A DNA stretch of 64,000 bases, from the NCBI RefSeq assembly GCF_016820515.1, contig NZ_JADHDV010000001.1:1-64000 (forward strand), written 5' to 3'. Origin of the DNA: Pseudoxanthomonas beigongshangi. Its GTDB lineage: Bacteria; Pseudomonadota; Gammaproteobacteria; Xanthomonadales; Xanthomonadaceae. Within the stretch, counting starts at the first letter, position 1; every line of letters begins with the position of its first letter. Position numbers and translations under genes: made by a program. Positions 1-16,538 of the stretch are shown here, one piece after another. A model generated the notes under the pieces. That model was given only the letters and a program-made list of their open reading frames with translations. It did not search any database and was not told where the DNA came from.

Positions 1-167
1 AGTGTCTACAGAACTCTGGCCGGTCCACCGGGACTAGGGGAACTGCACCGAAAGCATGGAGCCATAGTCGTGGTTGCAGGCGGCCTTAGTTGGTAGACAA
101 TCTTGACCATCAACGCGGTCGCTTGGTCGGATACACTCATTTCAGTTCTCTGATGCGGGATAGTGAG
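1..167. other. Left-edge stretch with no supported gene
   Basis: No reading frame here has convincing protein character. The first 37 bases read in frame 2 to a stop codon and could be the last codons of a gene that begins outside the window, but that is too short to identify. The rest lies downstream of the minus-strand small-gene cluster and appears non-coding. Confidence 0.4.
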
Positions 168-2694: not shown

Positions 2695-2919
2695 CTAATG
2701 CCTCGCGCCCAACTCACGAGGAATGATGCCTTCACACGCCAGTCGGAACATGGCGTGGTAATAGATGAGCGTCTTATCGTCGGGACCGGCACCCACCAGC
2801 AACGGACCCCAGGCTATCTCAATGCGCTGCCAGAGCGCGTCCCCAGTCAGACCATCGTCCTTGATGAGAGGAATCTCGGCCAGGAAGTCCTGCCAAGCTT
2901 TTGGGTCGCAGGTGGTCAT
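2695..2919 (-). CDS. RHS-locus-associated small protein, 74 aa (copy 1)
   Basis: This frame is almost identical to the one at 10450-10674; they differ at about eight of 74 residues. Both copies lie on the minus strand immediately upstream of, and divergent from, an RHS toxin locus. Near-synonymous conservation of the frame in two copies shows that it is translated. The protein begins MTTCDPKAWQDFLAEIPLIK, is acidic and helical, and has no signal peptide or membrane segment. No family is recognised. Its placement suggests a partner or regulator of the RHS locus, but it may simply have been carried along in the duplication. Confidence 0.65.
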   Translation of the reverse strand: MTTCDPKAWQDFLAEIPLIKDDGLTGDALWQRIEIAWGPLLVGAGPDDKTLIYYHAMFRLACEGIIPRELGARH

Positions 2920-3027
2920 TGGGTGGTCCGTGCCGGCATCAACCGATGGCTAATTCGGCATTCTACCCAATGAAATTGCACCGATCAGGGATGGCGGTTA
3001 TGACAATTGCCTTATTGTTGCGCGGAG

Positions 3028-3057
3028 TTGACGCGAGCATCTCCGGAGCGGTATTGA
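3028..3057 (+). promoter_or_regulatory. Candidate sigma-70 promoter for RHS locus 1
   Basis: TTGACG (3028-3033) and TATTGA (3052-3057) are separated by 18 bases and lie about 90 bases upstream of the first RHS gene. The -35 element matches five of six consensus bases and the -10 is fair. The interval also carries the start of the divergent 74-aa gene. Prediction only. Confidence 0.4.
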
Positions 3058-3145
3058 TACGCCACATTTGATGTGTTTCAGGGGACGCGGCGCACCGCTG
3101 CGCATTCAGGGAATTCGACCGGCTACGGTTGAAAGGGAAGAGGAA

Positions 3146-4930
3146 ATGAGAGGCTCCATCAGGATTCTGCTCCTGACGATGACGTTCGCCGCGCCGCTGC
3201 CTGCCCTCGCGCAGGTCACCATTCCACAGGAATACGAGAAGACCGTCCAGGCCAAGCAGGTCATTGGGGCCTTGGGGATGGATTTGTTCGGCGAGAGCAC
3301 CAGTTTCTATACGGGCGCCACCAGTTTCAGCGCGCTGGATGTCAGCCTGCCGGGCAACAGCGGACTGCCGATGGAAATCCGTCGGCAATTCGTTGTGGAA
3401 AGCCGGGACTCGCTGGATCGCAACCGGCTGTTGACGCGGGACGGCGGGTTCGCCGATTGGGAATTGGATCTGCCGCACCTGCGCGGGGTCTTCGCGTACG
3501 GCAAGGGATGGCAGGTGAACGGCACCACGACTGCGGCCAGGAACCAGCGCTGCGCCGGCGGAAACTCGTTTCCGCCCGAACCGCCCATCGCCGATGGCTC
3601 TCCCAGCGGATTCTGGGCCGCCGCCGAATACTGGCAAGGCAACCACCTGCACCTGCCAGCGGGCGGCGACCAGGAAATGCTGCTCATCGAGAATCCGACA
3701 TCACCCCGCCCCAACGACGGCAAGACCTATGTCTGGATTACCGAAAATCTCTGGGCCTTCTCCTGTCTTACCGGTACTGCCAATGGCGTAGCCGGGGATG
3801 CCTTCTTGGCGGTGGCTCCGGACGGCACCCGCTATTGGTTCAACTGGGTCGCCAAGCGGGAGGTCGCGGTCATCACCAAGACGGTCGGCGGCCCCATCGA
3901 TGCCCTCGCCGCGCAGGATGCCAGCGTCATGGCCGCGCCGGGAGGAACAGGGTCCGGCCTGATGCGCGAAGAGGTCCGCTTCCTTCCCACCCGTGTAGAA
4001 GACAAGGCGGGCAACTACATCACCTATACCTATGACCCCGCCAAGCCGTGGCGGTTGCTGAGCATGGCCGCCAATGACGGGCGTTCCCTGACCATGACCT
4101 ACGATGCCGCGGGTCACATCAGCACGGTCACCGATGGCACCCGGACCTGGACTTACACCTATGGCAATGGACTGACGGAAGTCACGCTGCCCGACCAGAG
4201 TCGCTGGCAGATTGATTTTGCAGGTCTGCGCGATGCCTTCACAATGCCCTATTCGCCCGGCGGATTGATGTGCTCCGAGTCCGGAGCCAGCACTGTCCAA
4301 TCCGTGTATACGGGCACCATCACCCATCCCTCTGGTGCCATTGGTACCTTCAGTTTCCAGTCCCGCACCCATGGCCGGTCCTACGTACCCAAGGTATGTG
4401 TAAGACCAGGCGGCATCGCGATACTGGACGACTACGCGCAGACGCCCTTTCTCTTCAACACAGTGGGCATCATCCAGAAGAAGATAGAAGGCCCCGGCGT
4501 TGCATCCCCTTATATCTGGACCTACAGCTACGGTGCGCCCAACAACAGTTGGGAGGAAAACTGCGCCAGTGGCTGCGTGGCGACGAAAACCGTGGAAGTG
4601 ACCGGTCCCGACGAATGGAAACGCTACACCTTCGGTAACCGCTACCGCCAGAATGAAGGCCGCTTGTTGAAGACCGAGTCGGGTACCAGCCCGACCAACA
4701 TCCTGGAAGTGGAAGAAACCGTCTATCAGACCGACCCGACGGGACAGCTCTATCCGGGATATCTCGGTGCTAGCCTCTACACACGCGGCGACTACATGGC
4801 GGGCAAGTTGACGCCGGTAAAGACCCGAACCATCAAGCGCCAGGGCACCGGCTTTACCTATACGGCTAACAGCTATGACCAGTACGCGCGCCCGGTCAGC
4901 GTCACCAAAAGCAGTGCGCCGGCGCCATGA
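3146..4930 (+). CDS. Secreted RHS/YD-repeat protein, N-terminal component of locus 1, 594 aa
   Basis: ATG 3146 follows AAGGGAAGAGGAA and gives a Sec signal peptide (MRGSIRILLLTMTFAAPLPALAQ, cleaved after ALA-Q). The mature part opens with the typical RHS entry region (QVIGALGMDLFGES, then a beta-rich segment with DVSLPGNSGLPMEIRRQF), followed by a Cys-containing segment and YD-like repeats from about residue 285 (YITYTYDPAKPWRLLS, YTYGNGLTEVTLPDQSRWQ). It has no RHS core and no toxin tip, and ends after a repeat-like segment (YTANSYDQYARPVSVTKS). A 62-base gap separates it from the second RHS gene. It appears to be the front half of a split RHS cage. A paralogue with the same layout is at 11025-12881. 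Confidence 0.85.
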   Translation: MRGSIRILLLTMTFAAPLPALAQVTIPQEYEKTVQAKQVIGALGMDLFGESTSFYTGATSFSALDVSLPGNSGLPMEIRRQFVVESRDSLDRNRLLTRDGGFADWELDLPHLRGVFAYGKGWQVNGTTTAARNQRCAGGNSFPPEPPIADGSPSGFWAAAEYWQGNHLHLPAGGDQEMLLIENPTSPRPNDGKTYVWITENLWAFSCLTGTANGVAGDAFLAVAPDGTRYWFNWVAKREVAVITKTVGGPIDALAAQDASVMAAPGGTGSGLMREEVRFLPTRVEDKAGNYITYTYDPAKPWRLLSMAANDGRSLTMTYDAAGHISTVTDGTRTWTYTYGNGLTEVTLPDQSRWQIDFAGLRDAFTMPYSPGGLMCSESGASTVQSVYTGTITHPSGAIGTFSFQSRTHGRSYVPKVCVRPGGIAILDDYAQTPFLFNTVGIIQKKIEGPGVASPYIWTYSYGAPNNSWEENCASGCVATKTVEVTGPDEWKRYTFGNRYRQNEGRLLKTESGTSPTNILEVEETVYQTDPTGQLYPGYLGASLYTRGDYMAGKLTPVKTRTIKRQGTGFTYTANSYDQYARPVSVTKSSAPAP

Positions 4931-4992
4931 CGAGCTGTGGCGAAGACAGGGCTGAACGACCGGCCTTGGCCGGTTTCGAGAGGGAATCACGC

Positions 4993-7900
4993 ATGAAGCG
5001 GACGGTATTGGGAATGGTGCTGGCGTTGCCGTTAGTGGCGCAGGCGCAGAGCTGGAGTCGGACCGAGACCATCACGTACCACGACAACCCGACGGTGTGG
5101 GTATTGGGGCAGACGGCCAAGGTGATCTGCGTGGCGCCGGCCGAGTGCACGCCGTCCTGGGCGCCTACGGGAATCGTGATGTCGGAGACGACCTACGACA
5201 CCCTGGCCCGGCCGGTGACGGTGAAGTCCTTCGGCAAGCTGACGCAGACCCTGACCTACGACACCACCTCCACGGTGGCCAGCGGTCAGCTGGGGACGCT
5301 GAAGACGGTCAAAGACGGCAACAACAACGTCACCACCTTCGGCAACTGGAAGCGGGGCATTCCGCAGGCCATCACCCATGCCGACAGTACGAGCCAGTCG
5401 GCGGTGGTGGATGACCGGGGCTGGATTGACTCGGTCACCGACGAGAACGGCTACAAGACCTGCTACACCTACGACACCATGGGGCGGCTGGCGAGCATTA
5501 CGTACCCCTCGGAGAGCGCGGCCAATGCCTGCGACACGACCGAGGCGAGCTGGAAGAAGACCCTGCTGACGTTCCAGCCGGTGGCGGTGGTCGAGTATGG
5601 CATTCCGGTCGGCCACTGGCGGCAGACGGTGAGCACCGGGGCGGGGCAGAAGATTACGTACTACGACGCCTTGTGGCGGCCGCTGGTGACCAAGGAGCTG
5701 GATGCCACCAATGGCACGGCCGAGACGTTGACCAAGCGGTTCCAGCGCTTTGCCTACGACGCCGAGGGACGCACCACCTTTGCCTCCTACCCCGGCACCA
5801 CCGATGCGCTGACCAAGGGCACCTGGACCGAGTACGACGCGCTGGGCCGAGTGACCTCGGTGAGCCAGGACAGCGAACTGGCGGCGCCGAGCAACCTGCT
5901 GACCACGACCACGCAATACCTCACCGGTTTCAAGACCCTGGTCACCAGCCCCAAGGGTCAGGTCACCACCACCAGCTACCAGACCTACGACCAACCCAGT
6001 TACGACTGGCCGGTGGCCATCACCCACCCGGAAGGCACCTACACCGACATCAGCCGGGACGTGTACGGCAAGGTGCTGACCATCACCCGGCGCAATGCCG
6101 GCAACACCGCCTGGCAGCGCCGCTACTACGTCTACAACGCCGCCCAGGAGCTGTGCAAAAGCACCGAGACCGAGACCGGCACCACGGCGTATGGCTACGA
6201 CGGTGCAGGCAACCTGAGCTGGAGTGCGGCGGGTCTGAGCTGGTCGCCGCCGGGGCCGTGCGAGCACACCAAGGAAGGCGTGGTGGCGCGCCGGGTGGAC
6301 CGCACCTATGACGCACGCAATCGGGTCAAGACACTAGTGTTCCCGGATGGACGCGGCAACACCACCAACACCTATGCCCCGGATGGTCAATTGGCCAGCA
6401 CAGCCGTGGACAATGACGGCACCAACGTGGTCACCACCACGTACAGCTACAACCGCCGTCGCCTGCCCACCAGCGAACGGATGCAATGGGGAAGTATCGA
6501 TTGGTCCATCGGCTATACCTATAACGCATTGGGGCACTTGGCCAGTCAGACCTACCCGAATACCGGGACAGTCACTTATGCGCCGAATGGTCTGGGACAG
6601 CCGACGCAAGCCGGCACTTATGCGACGGGAGTGACCTACCACCCTAACGGGGCGGTGAAGAACTTCACCTACGGCAATGGCATGGTCTACACCATGGCCC
6701 AGAATGCCCGCGGCCTGCCGACATGGAGCGTGGACTGCCTGATTGCCGGAGACTGCACCTTGTCCAATCGGCGCAAGTACCTGGCGTATACCTACGACGG
6801 CAATGGCAACGTGGCGACCATCACCGACCATGTCAACGGCCGCCAGACCCGGGCAATGACCTACGACGGCCTGGACCGGCTGACCCAGGCCACCGGCCCG
6901 AGCTTTGGTACCGCCACATACGGGTACAACGCTCTGGACAACATGACCACGCTAAAGGTCACCGCTGGTAGCAATATTCGGGACCATACCTATAACTACG
7001 ACACAGGCAACCGGCTAATCAGCGTTACCAATACCGTCGGCGGTGCCACGGTGGTTGGTCTGAGCTATGACGCCCAAGGCAACCTGGCAAACCAGAACGG
7101 CCGGGTATTCAACTTCGACTATGGCAATCGACTGCGCGGCGTGAACGGTGTGGCCAGCTATGTCTACGATGGCCATGGCCGACGGGTGCGGGACTACACC
7201 ACGGCCAGCAAGTACAGCCTGTACAGCCAGAGCGGGCAACTGGTGTTCGACAATGATGGCCGTGCCGGAAAGTCCAGCCAGTATGTATATCTGGGCACCA
7301 GTCTGGTGGCGGTGCGGGAGGTGGCCGGCAGTGTGACGACGGTGAAGTACCAGCACACCGATGCGCTGGGTACGCCCGTCGCAGTCACGGATGCAGCCAA
7401 GGCCATTGTTCAGACCAGCGAGTACGAACCCTATGGACAACTGGTCAACCGGCCGCTGACGGACGGGCCGGGCTTCACCGGGCATGTGCAGGATGCGGCC
7501 ACCGGGCTGACCTACATGCAGCAGCGGTATTACGATCCGCTCATCGGGCGGTTCCTGTCGGTCGACCCGGTGACGGCGTATGAGAAGCCTGTAACTAACT
7601 TCTGCCGTTACTGCTATGCCAGAAACAACCCATATAGATTTACCGATCCGGATGGTAGAGATACCGTTGGCGAAATGATTGACCAAGAAGCCTCTGCTGC
7701 TGCGCAACGGGGAGACAACTTGGCCACGTACGGATGGGCGTTTACGGCAGCAGCGTGGAACATTCTAGGGGCGGAAGGTGTTAGCCAGATTACCGACAAG
7801 GGACTATCTGGGACTGGAAACGGGAGCAAGGCAGGTGCTGCCGTAGAACTGGCCTCAGTGCTTCCAGTTGTTAAGGCTGCACGGGCAGTCGCCACACCCG

Positions 7901-8190
7901 TAAAATCGCTAATCAAGGCAGATTCGTTCTTAGTGAAAGCTGCTGAGTCTGCTGGAAAATCGGTTCAGAAATCTTTGGATGGACTGGTTTCTCAATTGTC
8001 CAAGGGGAACATGAACCCAGGCATCGGCACCAAACACTTATTTTCTGGGATCTTCGAGGCCAGAGCCCGCGATGGTGCCCGGGTCTACTTTCGCCAAACC
8101 GAGGGCGGTGGGATTGAAGTTGTGGCGAAGAGCTCAAAGCAGAACCAAGAGCAAGTTATCGGACGCCTCAAGGATATGTATGAAAAGTAG
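4993..8190 (+). CDS. Secreted RHS-core toxin protein of locus 1 with C-terminal toxin tip, 1065 aa
   Basis: The start at ATG 4993 gives a second signal peptide (MKRTVLGMVLALPLVAQAQS). About twenty YD-type repeats follow (for example YTYDTMGRLASI, YAYDAEGRT, YSYNRRRLPT). The RHS-associated core ends with YMQQRYYDPLIGRFLSVDP and closes at FTDPDGR (residues 885-889). The remaining 177 residues are unlike the paralogue and AT-richer. They hold an Ala-rich linker and a terminal domain of about 70 residues (GIGTKHL, ARDGARVYFR, GIEVVAKSSKQNQEQV). That pattern resembles RelE/ParE-like (BECR-fold) RNase toxins of polymorphic systems; this is a pattern match, not a proof. Sec export and the absence of PAAR or VgrG nearby argue against type VI delivery. 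The gene overlaps the putative immunity gene by 11 bases. Confidence 0.88.
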   Translation: MKRTVLGMVLALPLVAQAQSWSRTETITYHDNPTVWVLGQTAKVICVAPAECTPSWAPTGIVMSETTYDTLARPVTVKSFGKLTQTLTYDTTSTVASGQLGTLKTVKDGNNNVTTFGNWKRGIPQAITHADSTSQSAVVDDRGWIDSVTDENGYKTCYTYDTMGRLASITYPSESAANACDTTEASWKKTLLTFQPVAVVEYGIPVGHWRQTVSTGAGQKITYYDALWRPLVTKELDATNGTAETLTKRFQRFAYDAEGRTTFASYPGTTDALTKGTWTEYDALGRVTSVSQDSELAAPSNLLTTTTQYLTGFKTLVTSPKGQVTTTSYQTYDQPSYDWPVAITHPEGTYTDISRDVYGKVLTITRRNAGNTAWQRRYYVYNAAQELCKSTETETGTTAYGYDGAGNLSWSAAGLSWSPPGPCEHTKEGVVARRVDRTYDARNRVKTLVFPDGRGNTTNTYAPDGQLASTAVDNDGTNVVTTTYSYNRRRLPTSERMQWGSIDWSIGYTYNALGHLASQTYPNTGTVTYAPNGLGQPTQAGTYATGVTYHPNGAVKNFTYGNGMVYTMAQNARGLPTWSVDCLIAGDCTLSNRRKYLAYTYDGNGNVATITDHVNGRQTRAMTYDGLDRLTQATGPSFGTATYGYNALDNMTTLKVTAGSNIRDHTYNYDTGNRLISVTNTVGGATVVGLSYDAQGNLANQNGRVFNFDYGNRLRGVNGVASYVYDGHGRRVRDYTTASKYSLYSQSGQLVFDNDGRAGKSSQYVYLGTSLVAVREVAGSVTTVKYQHTDALGTPVAVTDAAKAIVQTSEYEPYGQLVNRPLTDGPGFTGHVQDAATGLTYMQQRYYDPLIGRFLSVDPVTAYEKPVTNFCRYCYARNNPYRFTDPDGRDTVGEMIDQEASAAAQRGDNLATYGWAFTAAAWNILGAEGVSQITDKGLSGTGNGSKAGAAVELASVLPVVKAARAVATPVKSLIKADSFLVKAAESAGKSVQKSLDGLVSQLSKGNMNPGIGTKHLFSGIFEARARDGARVYFRQTEGGGIEVVAKSSKQNQEQVIGRLKDMYEK

Positions 8191-8485
8191 TGTCTATCCA
8201 ATTGAGATTCGAATCCATCACGAAGTAGACGATGTTTTGAATGACAACGTAGATGCGGAGGTAGTGCTTTCAAATGGTGAAAGTAGAACGGTTACGTTCT
8301 TTACTCTCAGGAACATAGAGCAAGTGCTTAGTCGCTATAAGGAGTCTGGCGAATGCTTGTTTGGTAAGTATTTTTGGGCGAAGGATCTGATTATAGTTGA
8401 GAGTCTCGATTTTGAAGTCATCCGAAAGGTGGTGTGGGACCTTGTTGAGAGCGGTGAGTATGAAGGAGCGCTTGGTAGAAAGTAG
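8180..8485 (+). CDS. Putative cognate immunity protein of locus 1, 101 aa
   Basis: ATG 8180 lies inside the last codons of the toxin gene, seven bases after AAGGA, so the two are translationally coupled. The product is acidic, has no signal peptide and looks like a small alpha/beta protein (YPIEIRIHHEVDDVLNDNV, then RTVTFFTLRNIEQVLSRY and YFWAKDLIIVESLDFEVIRK). Position directly behind a toxin tip, small size, acidity and low GC are the usual marks of an immunity gene. A cytosolic immunity protein would suit an RNase tip. No named family is claimed. Confidence 0.65.
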   Translation: MKSSVYPIEIRIHHEVDDVLNDNVDAEVVLSNGESRTVTFFTLRNIEQVLSRYKESGECLFGKYFWAKDLIIVESLDFEVIRKVVWDLVESGEYEGALGRK

Positions 8486-8555
8486 TGTCGAGTGACTTGT
8501 TCAGTTGACAGGGCTGACCTACCTTTCTGTGGTACGCCCCCGCTTTCGTAGACGG

Positions 8556-9425
8556 TTAGGGGCTTTGTTTTGAGTTAACCGCCTCAAACATCATTGGGGC
8601 AAGGCCTCCCAGATGTCCATGGCGGCGCTGTCGATTGTAAAAAACCTCGATGTAATCGAACACGTCGCTACGCGCTTCTTCGCGACTGCTATAGACCCTG
8701 CCGCGTACGCGCTCCTTCTTCAAGCTGCTGAAGAACGACTCAGCGACTGAGTTGTCCCAGCAGTTGCCACGACGACTCATGCTGACTTCCAAGCCGTGCT
8801 CGCGGCAAAAGCGACGCCAGTCGTCACTGCCGTATTGCACGCCCTGGCCGGAGTGGATGACGACCTCCGATGTGGGTCGACGACGCCAGATAGCCATCAG
8901 CAAAGCATCCATCGCCAGTTCACGTGCCAAGCTGGATTTCATCGACCAGCCAATGACGGCACGCGAATAGAGATCGATCACCACGGCCAGATACAGCCAG
9001 CCTTCGGCGGTGCGCAGGTAGGTGATGTCCACCACCCACTTGGTGTTGGGTTCGTTGGCGGTGAAGTCACGGGCCAGATGATTGCGCACGAAGGACGGAC
9101 GCACGCCCGAAGGCTTGTGCCGCCAGCGTCGGCGCTGCGGCACGCCTGCCAGTCCGTCAGCTGTCATCAACCGAGCAACCCGGTTGAGGCTGTCGGTCTC
9201 GCCCTCGTAACCCAACACCTCGTGCATGCGCGGCGCACCCATGACGCCATCGCTGGCAGCATGGTGGTCGCGGATCTTCCCCAGCAATCGCGCGTTGTCA
9301 CGTGCACGCGTGCTGGGCTGGCGCAGGCACCAGTCGTGGAACCCGCTGGACGACACCTTCAGGCACCGGCACATCAGCCGGACTGGGTACTGGCCGCGGT
9401 GGCGCCGGATCGCCTCGTACCTCAA
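8556..9425 (-). CDS. IS3-family transposase OrfB, catalytic Asp replaced by Gly
   Basis: This 289-aa frame has the HTH_21 region ([15 protein letters not shown]), the linker [11 protein letters not shown] with the first catalytic Asp, and the family ending [19 protein letters not shown] with the catalytic Glu, then [19 protein letters not shown]. In the second catalytic box the usual HSDxGxQY reads [10 protein letters not shown]: codon 193 (8847-8849) is GGC, Gly, in place of Asp. The DDE triad is therefore broken and the protein should not transpose DNA. The frame begins inside OrfA with a 4-base overlap (9422-9425), the region where IS3 elements make an OrfAB fusion by frameshifting. Confidence 0.9.
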
Positions 9426-9660
9426 GACGATTCCTTGGCGAAGAACGCCGCCGCATCGCGCAAAAAATCGCGCTCCTTCGTCACCCGGGCCAACTGTCGC
9501 TTGAGCGCCAGGATTTCCTGGTCCCGAGCCACTCCTGCGCCGACAAAGGACTTCTTGCCGCGGACGTCCAACTCCCGGCGCCAGCGGAATAACAGGTTGG
9601 CACCTACGCCCAGGTCCTGGGCAATCTGACTGACGTTTCCTGCCCCATGATGAGGCTTCT
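9422..9660 (-). pseudogene. IS3-family OrfA, 5'-truncated
   Basis: The conserved part runs from [20 protein letters not shown], the second half of the helix-turn-helix, through the leucine-zipper region ([21 protein letters not shown]) to the family ending [10 protein letters not shown]. The first 30-35 residues expected in this family are missing. The open frame runs back through the terminal repeat to an ATG at 9772 outside the element, with no transposase character there. A deletion near this end of the IS is the simplest explanation. Confidence 0.75.
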
Positions 9661-9836
9661 TTGAAGTGTCCGTGTTAGCGGGGTAAAACCCGGAACACCC
9701 CGAGGGCGCCCTATATAGTTCCGGGCCATGGACTGAATAGCACGCCCGTCGCGCCGCTACTGCTGTCTTCACTCCAAAAGCACTAGAACTGAGGCCTACT
9801 CAAGAACCCCAAGATCTAAAATGGGAGTACTACGAG

Positions 9837-10085
9837 ATGCAGCACCCCACGCCTTCCAAGAGCGAACAGAATAATGGAAGGGAAGATATAGGCGACGAAC
9901 ATGCTGTTGAAGTGCTTGCTTGCCTGATTTCTATCGTTCGTGCGGTTCAGGAGCAGCCTGGAGTAGACGGCGCCAAGCTTCTATCGGGAATTCTCCGGAA
10001 TCTTGAGTCGGAGCCCGACACAACCCCGGATGCCAAGTCTATAGTTGGCCCCTTCCGGCAGGCGATTCGGGTCCTGTCATCCTAG
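9837..10085 (+). CDS. Hypothetical acidic protein, 82 aa
   Basis: ATG 9837 is preceded by GGGAG at a slightly long spacing. The product has a polar N-terminus (MQHPTPSKSEQNN), a helical middle (EHAVEVLACLISIVRAVQEQ) and an acidic linker. No family is recognised. It lies between the IS and a small membrane-protein gene on the same strand, 47 bases apart, and may be co-transcribed with it. Confidence 0.45.
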   Translation: MQHPTPSKSEQNNGREDIGDEHAVEVLACLISIVRAVQEQPGVDGAKLLSGILRNLESEPDTTPDAKSIVGPFRQAIRVLSS

Positions 10086-10132
10086 CGTCGTTTTCATTTC
10101 GACGTCCCAAGCTATTTGGCTAGTGAGGATAA

Positions 10133-10366
10133 ATGGACACCGAGAAAGACATGAACTCGCTCGCGGCCCACAAGGGTCTGTTGCTGGGCATGGTCTTTGG
10201 TACGGCGGTGGGCGCCTTCTTTGACCGCCCCGTAATCGGAATCGCGCTTGGCGCGGCCATCGGTTATCTGTACGACGCCGGGTACTTCAAGTCGAAGAGG
10301 CCTGCTTCGACGGCGGAGGGCGACGCCGCGTCCCAGAGTCCCAGTGAGGATGACGTTCCGCGCTAG
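10133..10366 (+). CDS. Small glycine-zipper membrane protein, 77 aa
   Basis: A GTGAGGAT ribosome binding site precedes ATG 10133. Residues 13-47 form a hydrophobic hairpin with Gly spacing (GLLLGMVFGTAVGAFF and VIGIALGAAIGYLYDAGYF), typical of small inner-membrane glycine-zipper proteins. A polar Ser/Asp-rich tail follows. No specific function can be given. It precedes RHS locus 2, but the divergent 74-aa gene lies in between. Confidence 0.55.
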   Translation: MDTEKDMNSLAAHKGLLLGMVFGTAVGAFFDRPVIGIALGAAIGYLYDAGYFKSKRPASTAEGDAASQSPSEDDVPR

Positions 10367-10449
10367 CAGGTCCACGATGTTCTCGCTCCTTTGGTTCGGA
10401 GCGTCGGATATAAGCTACTGAGTGGAATGATGGAGGCGCCACATTACTC

Positions 10450-10674
10450 TCAATGCCTCACGCCCCATTCGCGAGGAATGATGCCCTCGCATGCCAGCCG
10501 GAACATGGCGTGGTGATAGATGAGCGTCTTATCGTCGGGACAGGCCCCCACGAGCAATGGACGCCAAGCCCTCTCAATGCGCTGCCAGAGCGCATCTCCA
10601 GTCAGACCGTCATCCTTGATGAGGGGAATCTCGGCCAGGAAGTCCTGCCAAGCTTTCGGGTCACAAATAGTCAT
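10450..10674 (-). CDS. RHS-locus-associated small protein, 74 aa (copy 2)
   Basis: This is the paralogue of the gene at 2695-2919, with the same length, orientation and position relative to the following RHS pair. It begins MTICDPKAWQDFLAEIPLIK and ends FRLACEGIIPREWGVRH. Substitutions relative to copy 1 are few and do not break the frame, which supports a real protein. No family, signal peptide or membrane segment is seen. Its recurrence shows that the duplicated unit extends upstream of the RHS genes. Confidence 0.65.
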   Translation of the reverse strand: MTICDPKAWQDFLAEIPLIKDDGLTGDALWQRIERAWRPLLVGACPDDKTLIYHHAMFRLACEGIIPREWGVRH

Positions 10675-10900
10675 GGTGGGACTACAACGCTATCAGTCTC
10701 GAATACTGCGAGGGTCTGCTAAGGCTTTCATTGGCGGGCGCCAGCTAAAACGCCGTAGCCTGAACATATGTCCGAGCCGAGGCCTCCAGCCTGGATGCTG
10801 GTGCATGGTGCCAAACAAGAAACAGGTGCATCCATCCGCCGTTATCGGCTTTCATGATTCAAGGGGGCGGCGTCTACTCCTGACAATGATAGGGGGCGAC

Positions 10901-10929
10901 TTGTCGAGTCGCATGCGCTGGAATAGGAT
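10901..10929 (+). promoter_or_regulatory. Candidate sigma-70 promoter for RHS locus 2
   Basis: TTGTCG (10901-10906) and TAGGAT (10924-10929) are 17 bases apart and lie 96 bases before the first RHS gene of locus 2, about the distance seen in locus 1. The 10675-11024 interval otherwise holds no gene that I can support. Confidence 0.4.
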
Positions 10930-11024
10930 GCATTTTAATGATGGGGGACGGTCTTGGGGCGTAATCGGCCGCCCGTAGGCCGCATGTTTTCCTGAGTGCG
11001 CAGCATTCCGACGCAGGGGTAGGG

Positions 11025-12881
11025 ATGGGGATTTTGAAGTGTCGTAGTGGCAGCGTGGGGGTGTTCGGCGTCTTTTTCCTGATGGTGCTTCCGCAGATGG
11101 CGGCTGCCCAGGCGCCGAAGGAAACACACGAGGAATACGCCAAGCAGATCAAGACCGCCGAAGCCATCGGCGCGCTGGGCAGTGATTTGTTCGGCGAACA
11201 GGTCAATCTTTATACCGGCAGCCTGTCCTTCACCGTCACCGACGTCAGCCTGCGCGGGAACAACGCGCTGCCGGTGGAAGTCCGCCGCAGCTTCAAGGTC
11301 GAGTCGCGCGACAGCCTGTATTCGCTGGGCGCCTTCGGCGACTGGGAACTCGACATTCCCTACTTGTACGGCACGTTCGCCCGCAAGACGCTGTCCAGCG
11401 AGGTGGGCTGGCAGGTACGCACACTCACGCCCAACGCGCGTTGCTCGGTCAACGTCAATACCGCCATGCCACCGGATGCCGAAGCCTCCGGATCTGGTTC
11501 GGGTAACTACTTCGAGGCCGAGGAGTTCTGGGCCGGCAACTCCCTGCATCTCCCGGATGGCGGCGACCAGGAAATGCTGCTGGTGGCGTCGGAAAACCCC
11601 AATAAGCCGGCCGACGGGATGACCTATTACTGGACGACTTCCGGCCACTGGTTTTTCTCCTGTCTGGCCAATACGGCCAATGGCATCAGCGGCGAAGCCT
11701 TCCTGGCGCGCGGTCCGGACGGCACGACATACCGGTTCGACTACCCGGTAAAGCGCACCGCGCCCAGTCTCATGAGACGCATCTACAGCGCGACGGAGGG
11801 ATTCTCCGCAAGCGCGGCCGCGCCCCCGGCCGACGGAATCATCGTCCAGCCGATGGCCGCCAACGAACTGATTCTGAATCGGCAGGAAGTCCGCATCCTG
11901 CCCACCCGGGTGACCGACCGCTTCGGCAACTGGGTCGACTACACCTATGACGCCACGGTGGCGGGACGCTTGAACCGCATCAGCTCCAGCGATGGCCGCC
12001 AGATTGACCTGACCTACAACGCGAACGGCCAGATTGCGACGGTCACGGCCGGCACGCGGACCTGGACGTACGCCTACGCCACCGATACCACCGGCACGGC
12101 GCTCACCACGGTGACGCTGCCGGACAATGGCCGCTGGAGTTACAGCCTGGCGGGGCTGCGGACCATCTACGTGACCTACCTCCCGGACACGACCACTTGC
12201 GAGTCCGCCGGCGATATGGGCGGTTCCGGCGGTACCGGCACCCTGACACACCCCTCGGGGGCCAGTGGCAGCTTCACCGTCAACTGGGTGCGGCACGGAC
12301 GTTCCTACGTGCCCAATGGCTGCGTCATGGGCGGTGGCGGCCGGGTGCGCTACGCCATCATTCCGCAGACCTTCGACACGCCCAGCCTGACCAGCAAGCA
12401 AATCAGCGGCCCCGGCATCGCCACCGCCAACTGGACGTATGCCTACAGTGCCCCGACCGGCAGCTGGTTGCAGAACTGTCCCGCGCCCACCAGTTGCGTG
12501 CGCACCAAGACCGTGACGGTCAATGGTCCCGGGGAATGGTTGCGCTACACCTTCGGTACCAAGATGTTCGAGGACGAGGGCAAGCTGCTGAAGACCGAGC
12601 GCGGCGGAAGTGCATCCGCCCTCCTGCGCACGGACGAGACGACCTACCAGCTCAATGCCACGGGCATGGCGTACCCCCCTTTGCTGGGGCGCAGCCCCAA
12701 CGGGCGCGGCGACGGCATGTCCCAGTACCACGCACCGCAGCGCAAGGTCGTGACCACGCAACAGGGCACGGTATTCACCTGGCAGGTGGATGCCACCTGT
12801 GGCGGCAACGGGACGACCTTGTGCTTCGACACGTTCGCGCGTCCCACCAGGGTGACCAGGAGCAGCGCGCCGTCACCGTGA
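11025..12881 (+). CDS. Secreted RHS/YD-repeat protein, N-terminal component of locus 2, 618 aa
   Basis: The protein starts at ATG 11025 just after a GGGTAGGG purine stretch and carries a signal peptide (hydrophobic GVFGVFFLMVLPQMAAAQA). It is colinear with the locus 1 protein: the entry segment AEAIGALGSDLFGEQVNLY, the motif DVSLRGNNALPVEVRRSF, a DGGDQEMLLV segment, then YD-like repeats (WVDYTYDATVAGRLNRISS, WTYAYATDTTG). It ends with a Cys-bearing repeat and RPTRVTRSS. It has no RHS core or toxin tip. It is 58 bases upstream of the second RHS gene, and both carry their own signal peptides, so the two proteins probably meet outside the cytoplasm. Confidence 0.85.
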   Translation: MGILKCRSGSVGVFGVFFLMVLPQMAAAQAPKETHEEYAKQIKTAEAIGALGSDLFGEQVNLYTGSLSFTVTDVSLRGNNALPVEVRRSFKVESRDSLYSLGAFGDWELDIPYLYGTFARKTLSSEVGWQVRTLTPNARCSVNVNTAMPPDAEASGSGSGNYFEAEEFWAGNSLHLPDGGDQEMLLVASENPNKPADGMTYYWTTSGHWFFSCLANTANGISGEAFLARGPDGTTYRFDYPVKRTAPSLMRRIYSATEGFSASAAAPPADGIIVQPMAANELILNRQEVRILPTRVTDRFGNWVDYTYDATVAGRLNRISSSDGRQIDLTYNANGQIATVTAGTRTWTYAYATDTTGTALTTVTLPDNGRWSYSLAGLRTIYVTYLPDTTTCESAGDMGGSGGTGTLTHPSGASGSFTVNWVRHGRSYVPNGCVMGGGGRVRYAIIPQTFDTPSLTSKQISGPGIATANWTYAYSAPTGSWLQNCPAPTSCVRTKTVTVNGPGEWLRYTFGTKMFEDEGKLLKTERGGSASALLRTDETTYQLNATGMAYPPLLGRSPNGRGDGMSQYHAPQRKVVTTQQGTVFTWQVDATCGGNGTTLCFDTFARPTRVTRSSAPSP

Positions 12882-12939
12882 CGGGACAGGCATCCAGGAA
12901 TCAATGATCGGCACTGACCGGTCCAGACGGGGAACACGC

Positions 12940-15900
12940 ATGAAGCGGACAGGGAAGCAGGGGATGAAGCGGACGGTATTGAGCGTGCTGGTGGCCTTGC
13001 CCCTGGCGGCCCAGGCGCAGAGCTACAGCAAGACCGAGACCATCGAGTACCACGATGACACCACGTTGTGGGTGCTGGGCCAGGTCAAGCGGACCACGAC
13101 CAACGGCGTGGAGACGAGCCGGACCGATTATGGCTGGAAAGCGCTGCCGTGGAAGACGTATGCGTTCGGCAAGCTGCAGCAGACCTATGCCTACGACAAC
13201 ACTTCGGCAGTGAATACGGGCCAATTGGGCACGCTGAAGACGGTGACGGACGGCAACAACAACGTCACCACGTTCGGGAGCTGGAAGCGGGGCATTCCCC
13301 AGAGCATCGGCTACGCCGATGGCAGCACCCAGTCGGCGGTGGTGAACAATAACGGCTGGATTGACTCGGTCACCGACGAGAACGGCTACAAGACCTGCTA
13401 CACCTACGACACGATGGGGCGGTTGGCGAGCGTTACCCCACCGTCGGAAACCGCGGCCAATGCCTGCGACACCGGTGAGGCCAACTGGAAGAAGACCCTG
13501 CTGAGCTTCCAGCCGGTGGCGGCGGCCGAGTACGGCATTCCGGCCGGGCACTGGCGGCAGACGGTGAGCACCGGGACCGGGCAGAAGATTTCCTACTTCG
13601 ATGCCCTATGGCGGCCCTTGGTGGTACGCGAGTACGACGCAGCCAACGTGACGGGCTCCCAGCGTTTCAACCGGTTCGCCTACGACGCCGAGGGTCGGGT
13701 GACGTTCGCCTCCTACCCGGGCACGACCGATGCACTGACCACCGGCACTTGGACCGACTACGACGCCCTGGGCCGGGTGACGTCGGTGAGCCAGGACAGC
13801 GAGCAGGGACTGCTGACCACCACCACCCAGTACCTCGGCGATGCGACCAGCGCTTACGTGCGCACGGTCAGCCCGCGCGGCGTGGTGACGGTGACCCGGC
13901 ACCAGGCCTTTGACCAGCCCAGCTACGACACCCCGGTACTCATCGACCAGGGCCAGAACCTGGCCGAGCGGGTGGGCATCGACATCACCCGCGACGTGTT
14001 CGGCAAGGTACTGTCCATCCGCAAGCGCAACCCGGCCGGCACGCTGGCAGTGACCCGCAGCTATGCCTATAACGCCAACCAGGAGTTGTGCCGTTCGGTG
14101 GAACCGGAGACCGGGGCCACCTTGATGGGCTACGACGGGGCGGGCAACCTGGCCTGGAGCGCGGCGGGGCTGCCCGCGACCACGGCCTGCGAGGCCAACG
14201 GCACCAGTGGCCCCGTGGTGCTGCGCAAGGCGTCACGCACCTATGACGCCCGCAACCGGGTCAAGACGCTGGTCTTCCCGGACGGGCGGGGCAACACGAC
14301 CAATACCTACACGCCGGACGGCCTGCTGGCCACTACGGTGGTGGACAACGACGGCACCAACGTCGTGACCACCGGCTACACCTACAACCGCCGCCGCCTG
14401 TTGACGCTGGAACGGATGACCTGGGGGAGCGTGAACTGGCCGCTGGGCTACGGCTACAACGCGCTGGGGCACGTGAGCTGGCAAAGCTATCCCGATGCGG
14501 TGTCCTTGGTGAACTACGCACCCAATGCGCTGGGCCAACCGACTTCGGTCATTGACCAGGCCGGCAACGTCTACGCCAGCGGCATTCAATACCATCCCAA
14601 TGGCGGAATGAAGCAGTTCAGCTACGGCAATGGCATCGTCCACACGATGACCCAGAACGCCCGGCAGCTGCCGGCGCGCAGCACCGACAGCAACGGGGTG
14701 CTGGACCTGGGCTATGCCTACGACAAGCACGCCAACGTCACCGGCATCACCGACTACACGACCGGGGCCCGCCAGAGCCGTTCCATGATTTACAACGGTC
14801 TGGACCAACTGGTCCAGACCACTGGCGTCAGTTTCGGTACGGCCAACTACAGTTACAACGTGCTGGACAACCTGACCTCGCTGAAGGTGACCGGTGGCAG
14901 CCACGCCCGCGACCACACCTACCATTACGACGCCAGAAATCTGCTGACCAGTGTGACCAACACGGTGGGCGGCGCCACGGTGGTGGGCATGGACTACGAC
15001 CCGCAGGGCAACCTGAGCAACAAGAACGGGCAGGGCTATACCTTCGACCTCGGCAACCGCCTGCGCACGGCTGACAACCTGGTCAGTTATGTCTATGACG
15101 GCCACGGTCGGCGCGTAAGGGATGTCACGGCGGCCGGCAGCAAGTACAGCTTGTACAACCAGGCCGGACAGTTGATGTATGCCAGCGACGTACGGCAGAG
15201 CAGGCAGACCTATTACATTTCGCTGAACGGAAGCCTGTTGGCCACCCGCGAGAAGAACACCGCCACCGGTGCCGTGGTGAGCCGGTTCCAGCACACCGAT
15301 GCGCTGGGCACGCCCATCGCGGTGACGGATGCAGCCAAGGCCATCGTTGAGACCAGCGAGTACGAGCCTTATGGGCCCCTGGTCAACCGGGCGTTGACGG
15401 ACGGGCCCGGCTTCACCGGGCATGTGCAGGATGCGGCCACCGGGCTGACCTACATGCAGCAGCGGTATTACGACCCGGTCATCGGTCGGTTCCTGTCGGT
15501 GGACCCGGTGACGGCGTATTCCAAGGGAACAGATTTTTTTAACCGATATAAGTACGCGAACAATAACCCGTACAAGTTTACGGACCCGGATGGACGGGAA
15601 GTGGTTTACGCGTATGGAGAAGGTATATCGGCTTCAGACGGAAGGAGATTCATGATATCTGTGGCGGGTTTCTCTGAAACTGCACATAGTGAAATGAGGC
15701 AGCTTGAGGAGTCAGGGAAGATGTACACCGTTCTCATCGATAACAATGTACAGCCTGGTTACGATCCGAATACACGTACAGTGAGGCTAAATCCTTCTTA
15801 TGGATTTCGTATTAAATCGACGGGTCAAGTGCAATCACCAAAAGTGAATAGTGGGCATGAAATTACTCATGCTGCTGAGCACGATCGTGTAGGAGATAAA

Positions 15901-16086
15901 GCATTTGGGGCGGCGCTAAAGAGACCGACAAACTCTGATGGCACGAAGGGGGTTAGTCCAGAGGAGAAGCGCGCGACCAACGTAGAGAGAAAGATTGGCG
16001 AAGAACTCGGTGAACCTACGCGGAAAGATTATAAGGATGCCGGAGATATGGTGAAGTGCAATCCGAAGGCGACTACTGGGTGTTAG
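12940..16086 (+). CDS. Secreted RHS-core toxin protein of locus 2 with M91-like metallopeptidase tip, 1048 aa
   Basis: ATG 12940 after GGGGAACACGC gives an N-terminus with two in-frame copies of MKRT; ATG 12964 is the position equivalent to locus 1. A signal peptide (VLSVLVALPLAAQAQS) is followed by YD repeats nearly identical to locus 1 and a core ending YYDPVIGRFLSVDP...FTDPDGR (882-886). The last 163 residues are unrelated to locus 1, AT-richer, and contain GHEITHAAEH (zinc motif H973-E974-x-x-H977) and, downstream, ERKIGEELGEPTRKDY. That combination resembles the M91 (NleD-type) effector peptidases found as RHS tips. Zinc-peptidase activity follows from the family; the target is unknown. 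The tip ends in a short Cys-containing tail. Confidence 0.88.
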   Translation: MKRTGKQGMKRTVLSVLVALPLAAQAQSYSKTETIEYHDDTTLWVLGQVKRTTTNGVETSRTDYGWKALPWKTYAFGKLQQTYAYDNTSAVNTGQLGTLKTVTDGNNNVTTFGSWKRGIPQSIGYADGSTQSAVVNNNGWIDSVTDENGYKTCYTYDTMGRLASVTPPSETAANACDTGEANWKKTLLSFQPVAAAEYGIPAGHWRQTVSTGTGQKISYFDALWRPLVVREYDAANVTGSQRFNRFAYDAEGRVTFASYPGTTDALTTGTWTDYDALGRVTSVSQDSEQGLLTTTTQYLGDATSAYVRTVSPRGVVTVTRHQAFDQPSYDTPVLIDQGQNLAERVGIDITRDVFGKVLSIRKRNPAGTLAVTRSYAYNANQELCRSVEPETGATLMGYDGAGNLAWSAAGLPATTACEANGTSGPVVLRKASRTYDARNRVKTLVFPDGRGNTTNTYTPDGLLATTVVDNDGTNVVTTGYTYNRRRLLTLERMTWGSVNWPLGYGYNALGHVSWQSYPDAVSLVNYAPNALGQPTSVIDQAGNVYASGIQYHPNGGMKQFSYGNGIVHTMTQNARQLPARSTDSNGVLDLGYAYDKHANVTGITDYTTGARQSRSMIYNGLDQLVQTTGVSFGTANYSYNVLDNLTSLKVTGGSHARDHTYHYDARNLLTSVTNTVGGATVVGMDYDPQGNLSNKNGQGYTFDLGNRLRTADNLVSYVYDGHGRRVRDVTAAGSKYSLYNQAGQLMYASDVRQSRQTYYISLNGSLLATREKNTATGAVVSRFQHTDALGTPIAVTDAAKAIVETSEYEPYGPLVNRALTDGPGFTGHVQDAATGLTYMQQRYYDPVIGRFLSVDPVTAYSKGTDFFNRYKYANNNPYKFTDPDGREVVYAYGEGISASDGRRFMISVAGFSETAHSEMRQLEESGKMYTVLIDNNVQPGYDPNTRTVRLNPSYGFRIKSTGQVQSPKVNSGHEITHAAEHDRVGDKAFGAALKRPTNSDGTKGVSPEEKRATNVERKIGEELGEPTRKDYKDAGDMVKCNPKATTGC

Positions 16087-16091
16087 AAACC

Positions 16092-16538
16092 ATGAGAGCA
16101 ATCTTGTCCGGCTGTTTACTAATCTTTATTGTGAGTTGCTCGCGTGAAAGTGAATCGGACGCGTCTGCGGAGGGGAGGGCTGCTGTTACGGGTAGTTTTA
16201 GCTCGGAGGCATGCCTTCCATCGGCTCCGACTTATGAAACAGTGTCTATTGCCGAACTGATTGCAAGTCCAGATAAATTTGACGGCAGGTCCATTGTCGT
16301 AACAGGATACTACTATTCTGGATTCGAGCTTAGTGCGCTATATCCAAGTAGGCGTAATCCGGAGAATTCGGAGACAGATGATGGCCTATGGATATACGGG
16401 TTGTCGCCATTTCTAGACCTTGATGGACGGCACATCGCTGTATCGGGGATCTTTAATAGCAAGGAAAAGGGCCATCTTGGGCAGTGGCCAGGATCGGTGT
16501 GTGTCTCAGCAGTTCCTTCAGTCCTGCAACCGGAGTAA
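16092..16538 (+). CDS. Putative immunity lipoprotein of locus 2, 148 aa, OB-fold-like
   Basis: The gene starts five bases after the toxin stop. The N-terminus MRAILSGCLLIFIVSC has a lipobox (IVSC), so the mature protein should be a lipid-anchored periplasmic or outer-membrane protein. The remainder (VSIAELIASPDKFDGRSIVV, LYPSRRNPEN, HIAVSGIFNSKEKGHLGQW) resembles small OB-fold-like beta-barrel proteins. Location suggests immunity, and a periplasmic anchor would imply that the peptidase tip acts in the periplasm or envelope. The alternative is an unrelated cargo lipoprotein. Confidence 0.6.
   Translation: MRAILSGCLLIFIVSCSRESESDASAEGRAAVTGSFSSEACLPSAPTYETVSIAELIASPDKFDGRSIVVTGYYYSGFELSALYPSRRNPENSETDDGLWIYGLSPFLDLDGRHIAVSGIFNSKEKGHLGQWPGSVCVSAVPSVLQPE

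What the first reader, a model, noticed from the sequence alone, without database searches (positions are those of the whole stretch)
2695..16538. Two adjacent, paralogous split RHS toxin loci with shared backbone and different toxin tips
Each locus has the same four parts in order: a divergent 74-aa gene, a secreted RHS protein of about 600 aa without a core, a secreted RHS protein of about 1050 aa with core and tip, and a small gene in the immunity position. The backbones are so alike that DNA runs are shared (around 7470-7570 and 15408-15510), while the tips after the FTDPDGR motif are unrelated and AT-richer. RHS toxins are usually one large protein with PAAR or another delivery domain. 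A two-protein, Sec-exported RHS with a signal peptide on each half is unusual. The likely meaning is an extracellular or periplasmic cage assembled from two polypeptides, with locus duplication allowing toxin swapping.
Basis: partly seen in the sequence, partly recalled or inferred. Interest (0 to 1): 0.85.

Follow-up and report, generated by a model that had tools for sequence, protein, structure and literature searches.

The report
Secreted RHS toxin in separate pieces
Two neighbouring bacterial toxin loci each encode one cage-like toxin as two separately exported proteins, and relatives show the same cage cut again and again at the same three places, each new piece with its own export signal, so the cage is probably put together outside the cytoplasm.

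Summary
Two loci (3146-8485, 11025-16538) each encode P1 (~600 aa, no core), P2 (~1,060-1,090 aa: repeats, core, tip) and a small downstream gene; P1 and P2 each start with a leader. The 74-aa gene is not part of the system. A frameshift is very unlikely: among 116 homologous loci, 84 have P1 and P2 as one chain and 26 were called split, 25 of them with a leader at the same repeat turn. The backbone is also cut at two other fixed turns: J2 (11 split, 90 fused) and J3, just before the core (26 split, 65 fused); leaders were called on 10/11 and 25/26 downstream pieces (1.9 and 2.8 expected). Every J2 and J3 split has extra residues at a free end (FN3/Ig where scanned); no fused chain counted does. 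P1, P2 and tips are exchanged independently. Best reading: one RHS shell assembled after Sec export from separate pieces. Assembly is inferred: P2 alone aligns over most of an Rhs shell, so P1 may be a cap. Five searches of an open-access library listed nothing on split secreted Rhs cages. New variant of a known kind.

The parts
3146..4930 (+). P1a: leader + first RHS repeats, no core (ORF from 3068; start 3146 preferred)
   Evidence: leader MRGSIRILLLTMTFAAPLPALA read by eye (the rule did not reach it); homologous to P1b
4993..8190 (+). P2a: leader + RHS/YD repeats + RHS core + tip A (ORF from 4927; start 4993 preferred)
7660..8190 (+). tip A, after FTDPDGR
   Evidence: no Pfam or NCBIfam family matched it at E 0.1 that covers it convincingly; full-length homologue 60% identical at the end of a 1,719-aa open frame in G300
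8180..8485 (+). presumed immunity gene for tip A, overlapping the P2a stop
   Evidence: homologue (55%) directly behind the full-length tip-A homologue in L178
11025..12881 (+). P1b: leader + DUF6531-like part and first RHS repeats, no core
   Evidence: (both matches weak); AlphaFold2 pLDDT 89.6, pTM 0.88; Foldseek 8qjc E 5.9e-13 but TM 0.10-0.27 over the listed RHS, teneurin and Tc hits
12964..16086 (+). P2b: leader + RHS/YD repeats + RHS core + tip B (ORF from 12904; start 12939 or 12964)
   Evidence: AlphaFold2 blocks from 41 to 850 at pLDDT 86-98
15598..16086 (+). tip B, HEITH motif, weak Peptidase_M91 match
   Evidence: E 0.039, below cut-off; found on a J3 cartridge in G036
16092..16538 (+). 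presumed immunity lipoprotein for tip B (ORF from 16056)
   Evidence: homologue (40%) directly behind the tip-B homologue in L074/L174; lipobox IVSC read by eye

Best explanation
Each locus makes one antibacterial RHS polymorphic toxin as two separately exported chains. P1 (N-terminal part and first RHS strands) and P2 (remaining strands, core autoprotease, toxin tip) each cross the inner membrane by Sec with their own leader and pair in the periplasm or outside, the last P1 strand meeting the first P2 strand where a single-chain relative simply has a hairpin turn. The core is expected to cut after DPDGR and leave the tip in the shell; the small gene behind protects the producer. The wider family shows the design rule: leader-bearing cuts fall at three turns (J1 P1/P2, J2 near P2b 376-381, J3 near 786-790, just before the core), free ends often carry extra domains of FN3/Ig type, and core+tip pieces can occur as secreted cartridges, sometimes several beside one body. 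Shown: gene structure, recurrence, leaders by a simple rule, extra residues at free ends, module exchange. Inferred: co-assembly, cleavage, target, and exit across the outer membrane (type II secretion is the first candidate).
For: 116 distinct P1 loci. Fused/split/rest: J1 84/26/6, J2 90/11/15, J3 65/26/25. Leader called on the downstream piece in 25/26, 10/11, 25/26, against 1.9, 1.9, 2.8 expected from shuffled N-termini. Hydrophobic segment at J1: 2 of 84 fused, 25 of 26 split. Breaks noted by eye elsewhere in the listing (between pieces: L069, L086, L102, L128, L166, L170; inside P1: L073, L081, L105, L152) had no leader called on the later piece. Fused chains read ..FD.FARPT.VT.SS..Y.RTE..Y.D..; most split ones stop after ..SSAP.P and restart leader + Y.[RK]TE, 8 of 26 with an added stretch over 80-120 aa. 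J2 and J3 lie in inter-strand turns of the P2b model. Extra residues at free ends: J2 11/11 split vs 0/90 fused, J3 26/26 vs 0/65; no single ORF with an insert over 80 aa there. P2b shares 85.9% DNA with L062 from 12929 to 15596 (P2 start to DPDGR) while the P1s are 31% identical. Tip+immunity pairs recur on other backbones. dN/dS 0.25-0.40 in five P1 or P2 comparisons, two of them with dS above 1.2. No T6SS VipA in the genome; GspD present.
Against: No experiment and no model of the complex. P2 alone aligns over about a whole Rhs shell (8qjb, 964 columns with gaps on a 1,037-residue chain, TM 0.51; Tse5 TM 0.57) and collinearly with a bacterial teneurin shell, so it might close without P1. 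The highest P2 TM, 0.59 with TcdB2-TccC3, is hardly above Tse5, and other TcB-TcC entries score 0.48-0.58. TM for P1 is low everywhere. Leaders come from a simple rule, not SignalP; it misses what look like leaders in L132 and L108 and misplaces L141. Loci are not independent samples. The P2-like gene on C21 has no P1 beside it. J2 and J3 lying in turns is weak by itself: 47% of P2b residues 45-857 are outside strands.
Confidence: 0.65

Rival explanations
1. P2 closes its own cage and P1 is a separately acting cap, plug or adhesin, kept next to it for regulation or release.
For: P2 spans almost a whole Rhs/teneurin shell in sequence and by Foldseek; P1 identity varies widely against P2 (r 0.30 over 4,529 pairs); P2-like gene without P1 on C21; P1 superposes poorly on every solved shell listed.
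Against: In 84 loci P1 and P2 are one chain joined inside one repeat; P1's first 40 listed structural hits are RHS, teneurin or Tc shells and one related salivary protein.
Confidence: 0.25
2. The split is selectively neutral: fission is tolerated because Sec leaders are easily gained, and the pieces simply reassemble. (Overlaps with the best explanation on assembly, differs on its use.)
For: J1 changes state at least 17 times on either tree, almost as often as shuffled labels (minimum 18).
Against: Leader-bearing cuts fall at three sites; J2/J3 states cluster on the trees (4-6 and 9-16 changes vs shuffled minima 9 and 19); every J2/J3 split has extra residues at a free end and no fused chain counted does.
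Confidence: 0.3
3. Pseudogene or assembly frameshift.
For: Some loci in the set are broken off-site (for example L069, L086, L102, L105, L128, L166, L170).
Against: Window splits have ribosome-binding sites and leaders, recur in 25 loci of many species, and both halves look under purifying selection.
Confidence: 0.03

Closest known systems
Tc/ABC toxin TcB-TcC cocoon (YenB with YenC1/C2/C3)
   Same: RHS cocoon made of two polypeptides; one B chain can take several C chains encoded at different loci, each with a variable tip (PMC11067744, passages read).
   Different: No SpvB or propeller family in P1a/P1b (Pfam to E 0.1); each piece has its own leader; up to three cut sites. A TcA partner was not looked for. 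Tc sequences were not fetched.
Bacterial teneurin-like proteins (BiTLP, 9ifo)
   Same: Top hit of P2 by profile and by Foldseek E-value (TM only 0.33); toxin kept in the shell; R/D/D autoprotease residues at matching places (R854, D867, D894 in P2b; PMC13018210 section 7).
   Different: One chain with NHL and FN-plug; no NHL or fn3 family found in P1 or P2.
T6SS PAAR-Rhs effectors (RhsA, Tse5, Tre23)
   Same: Same shell and core family; in RhsA self-cleavage at both ends leaves pieces that stay together (PMC8765631, passages read).
   Different: RhsA carries PAAR and goes through a T6SS; here no PAAR and no VipA in the genome.
Sec/T2SS-class RHS polymorphic toxins and orphan toxin modules
   Same: Signal-peptide RHS toxins with swappable tips are known (PMC3482391, passages read).
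   Different: No split shell in the passages read; orphan modules are described as incomplete gene fragments (PMC11067744), whereas the J3 cartridges here are whole ORFs with leader and core.

Membership tests
RHS/YD-repeat polymorphic toxin | YD/RHS repeats | tested here: met
   PF05593 E 1.4e-29 (P2a), 2.6e-14 (P2b), both above cut-off; P1a E 0.0014 and P1b E 0.083, both below cut-off
RHS/YD-repeat polymorphic toxin | core with autoprotease residues | tested here: met
   TIGR03696 above cut-off; R854, D867, D894 invariant in 27 rows; cleavage itself not tested
RHS/YD-repeat polymorphic toxin | variable tip with cognate immunity | tested here: inconclusive
   tips diverge after FTDPDGR; a homologue of the downstream gene lies behind 1 of 3 other tip-B carriers and 1 of 3 tip-A matches, two of which match the first 116 residues only; protection not tested
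Tc toxin BC component | SpvB and propeller regions in the B chain | tested here: not met
   no such Pfam family at E <= 0.1 in P1a/P1b
Tc toxin BC component | RHS cocoon built from two chains | tested here: inconclusive
   two chains shown; joint cocoon inferred
T6SS PAAR-Rhs effector | PAAR domain and a T6SS | tested here: not met
   no PAAR family in P1/P2; no VipA in own genome
Bacterial teneurin-like protein | NHL and FN-plug before the shell | tested here: not met
   no NHL or fn3 family in P1a, P1b, P2a, P2b at E <= 0.1; the FN-plug itself was not modelled
Type II secreted protein | export across the outer membrane by Gsp proteins | not testable with these tools
   only presence of GspD shown

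The most novel reading that the evidence does not exclude
A modular, separately secreted RHS machine: shell segments and toxin cartridges are exported one by one and snap together outside the cytoplasm at three fixed hairpin turns, so one body can be loaded with several cartridges without gene rearrangement, and free ends carry adhesive domains that aim it.
Probability: 0.4. Interest if true: 0.85.

Novelty: new variant of a known kind. Interest (0 to 1): 0.68.

Why it matters
RhsA and the bacterial teneurin BiTLP hold their toxin inside a one-gene cage (passages read). If pieces exported separately can pair and still enclose a toxin, assembly and loading must happen after Sec export, a directly testable folding question. 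The three fixed cut sites would be natural split-protein sites, and the cartridges would allow toxin exchange at the protein level. P1 relatives were found in 29 of 61 genomes searched around the window and, in the named scan, across Xanthomonadales with some Massilia, Undibacterium and Roseateles.

Tried and rejected
The 74-aa gene as a fourth part: rejected. Assembly frameshift: very unlikely. T6SS delivery: no VipA in the genome. Recent tandem duplication: not supported by the quick P1 tree. Tip families: nothing usable for tip A; Peptidase_M91 for tip B only at E 0.039. Bias in the decoration count: 'fused' was defined by one BLAST segment crossing the site, which could hide inserts, so I looked for single ORFs with two segments and an insert over 80 aa: none at J2 or J3; that check cannot register J1, where 3 of 84 fused chains have a spacer over 80 aa. 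'Decorated' there means length only; domains were named for 8 proteins. L166 was first counted as a J1 split; it breaks upstream and was recoded. My note says 8 loci hold two or more cartridges; the output lists 7. The list of off-site breaks was made by eye, not by a count. The decisive computation, a P1-P2 complex model, could not be run (single chains up to 1,200 aa). Literature: five searches listed no split secreted Rhs cage; only open-access papers are held.

Full report
What is there. The window is the first 64 kb of contig C1 of a 4.23-Mb genome in 68 contigs. Locus A: P1a 3146-4930, P2a 4993-8190, small gene 8180-8485. Locus B: P1b 11025-12881, P2b 12964-16086, small gene 16092-16538. 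P1 has only weak RHS-repeat (and, P1b, DUF6531) matches; P2 has clear RHS repeats and an RHS core. P2a and P2b are 63% identical to FTDPDGR and unrelated after it. A third P1/P2 locus lies on C68, a P2-like gene without P1 on C21, and a P1 fragment at the start of C34.

The split is real and recurrent. At J1, 84 are fused, 26 split, 6 incomplete. Fused chains run straight through a single YD repeat; split ones end after its first strand and restart with a leader and its second strand, in 8 of 26 with an added stretch between. A leader was called in 25 of 26; the exception, L166, is broken upstream of the site. In the window, P2a has AGAGGGA before ATG 4993, and P2b has purine-rich stretches before both candidate starts.

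Two more cut sites. The same backbone is cut near P2b residues 376-381 (J2: 11 split, 90 fused, 15 other) and 786-790 (J3: 26 split, 65 fused, 25 other). Both fall between consecutive strands of the P2b model, although 47% of residues 45-857 lie outside strands, so this alone is weak. Leaders were called in 10 of 11 and 25 of 26, against 1.9 and 2.8 expected; L141's call is at the wrong place, while L132 and L108, called negative, look like leaders by eye. Measured from the longest ORF start, 6 J1, 5 J2 and 11 J3 splits overlap by 4 bases; real starts may differ. Breaks that I noted by eye elsewhere (between pieces L069, L086, L102, L128, L166, L170; inside P1 L073, L081, L105, L152) had no leader called on the later piece.

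Decoration. All 11 J2 and all 26 J3 splits have 98-676 extra residues at a free end, none of the 90 and 65 fused chains does. Of 8 such proteins scanned, Pfam names fn3 in L107 above cut-off (weaker in L123), Big_7 in L114 and L165, N_BRCA1_IG in L094, L132 and L130; L158 gave none for its extension. At J1, 8 of 26 splits are decorated and 3 of 84 fused chains have a spacer over 80 aa. The window's own two loci are undecorated.

Evolution. On quick trees of P1 (113 rows) and P2 (97 rows), J1 changes state at least 17 times on either, J2 6 and 4 times, J3 16 and 9 times. Parsimony cannot tell fission from fusion, and recombination inflates the counts. P1 and P2 recombine: identities correlate at r 0.30 over 4,529 pairs; L119/L120 (two fused loci on one contig) share 90% in P2 and 32% in P1; window P2b and L062 share 84% in P2 and 31% in P1, with DNA homology from 12929 to 15596.

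Tips and immunity. Of 299 genomes searched, tip B recurs in 3 others: on a J3 cartridge in G036 with a 40% identical lipoprotein gene behind it, and in two where no homologue of that gene was found in the fetched DNA. Tip A recurs full-length in 1 other (G300), at the end of a long open frame with a 55% identical gene behind it; two more match its first 116 residues only. So the same tip is found on split and fused backbones. A lipoprotein immunity suggests that tip B acts in the periplasm, and a leaderless one that tip A acts in the cytoplasm (inference).

Cartridges. By the same leader rule, without a shuffled control, 32 ORFs with leader + core + tip lie in 24 loci; 7 loci hold two or more, one of which (L157) also holds two bodies. 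L146 (Undibacterium flavidum) has three with nearly the same stretch before the core and different residues after it. L160 and L171 are bodies ending in FN3-like repeats (by eye) with no cartridge called directly behind; L144 looks alike but its contig ends there.

Structure. AlphaFold2: P1b pLDDT 89.6, pTM 0.88; P2b backbone mostly 86-98, tip disordered, pTM 0.77. Foldseek: P1 hits RHS shells first (8qjc E 5.9e-13) with TM 0.10-0.27; P2 hits BiTLP 9ifo E 3.7e-39 (TM 0.33), Tse5 TM 0.57, and TcdB2-TccC3 entries TM 0.48-0.59. P1 is therefore RHS-like sheet and P2 most of a shell. Whether they share one cocoon is not decided by these scores.

Mechanism, step by step. Separate export of both halves: likely (0.85, leaders by rule). 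Co-assembly into one shell: likely (0.65). Self-cleavage after DPDGR: expected from the conserved R/D/D residues (BiTLP R2103/D2116/D2140, PMC13018210 section 7). Antibacterial role with immunity: likely. Outer-membrane exit by T2SS: a guess (0.3), resting on GspD presence and T6SS absence.

Known or not. Sec-class RHS toxins (PMC3482391), two-chain RHS cocoons with several C chains (PMC11067744) and a self-cleaved Rhs shell (PMC8765631) are known; these three were read as passages only, PMC13018210 as abstract, passages and section 7, and PMC6653060 (T6SS of Xanthomonadales) as passages, which name Rhs proteins only in a T6SS context. None of these passages describes leader-bearing split shells, and five searches of the held library listed none. 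I rate it a new variant of a known kind.

Noticed in passing
window 8556-9772: An IS3-like transposase pair (name recalled from the sequence; no family search run) lies between the two loci; 8526-9029 is 84% identical in DNA to part of L126.
   Followed up: no
window 2695-2919 and 10450-10674: Two copies of a 74-aa gene, 91% identical, dN/dS 0.08: a real gene of unknown role, distant homologues in 3 of 37 other genomes of the genus.
   Followed up: partly
L022 5423-8863 (own genome C21): P2-like gene with a different N-terminus and no P1 beside it; tip looks like an M23 peptidase (motif recalled, not searched).
   Followed up: partly
L025 2614-3336, minus strand (own genome C14): Leader-like start joined to the last part of the core (RFLSVDP..) and a tip: a cartridge cut later than J3.
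   Followed up: no
own genome C2:157019-158779: Another RHS frame near a contig end that gave no P1 or P2 match in the listing.
   Followed up: no
L146 12945-18795: Three leader-bearing cartridges in a row with nearly the same stretch before the core and different tips, one behind a P2 fragment.
   Followed up: partly
L119 and L120: Two fused loci on one contig of Lysobacter psychrotolerans: P1 32% identical, P2 90%: recombination at J1 in single-chain genes too.
   Followed up: partly
window 2-27 and end of C68 (L021 9855-9880): 26 identical bases in inverted orientation at the ends of contigs C1 and C68, perhaps a repeat that broke the assembly.
   Followed up: no
window 9837-10085 and 10133-10366: Two small ORFs between the loci with no match in loci fetched from elsewhere.
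   Followed up: partly
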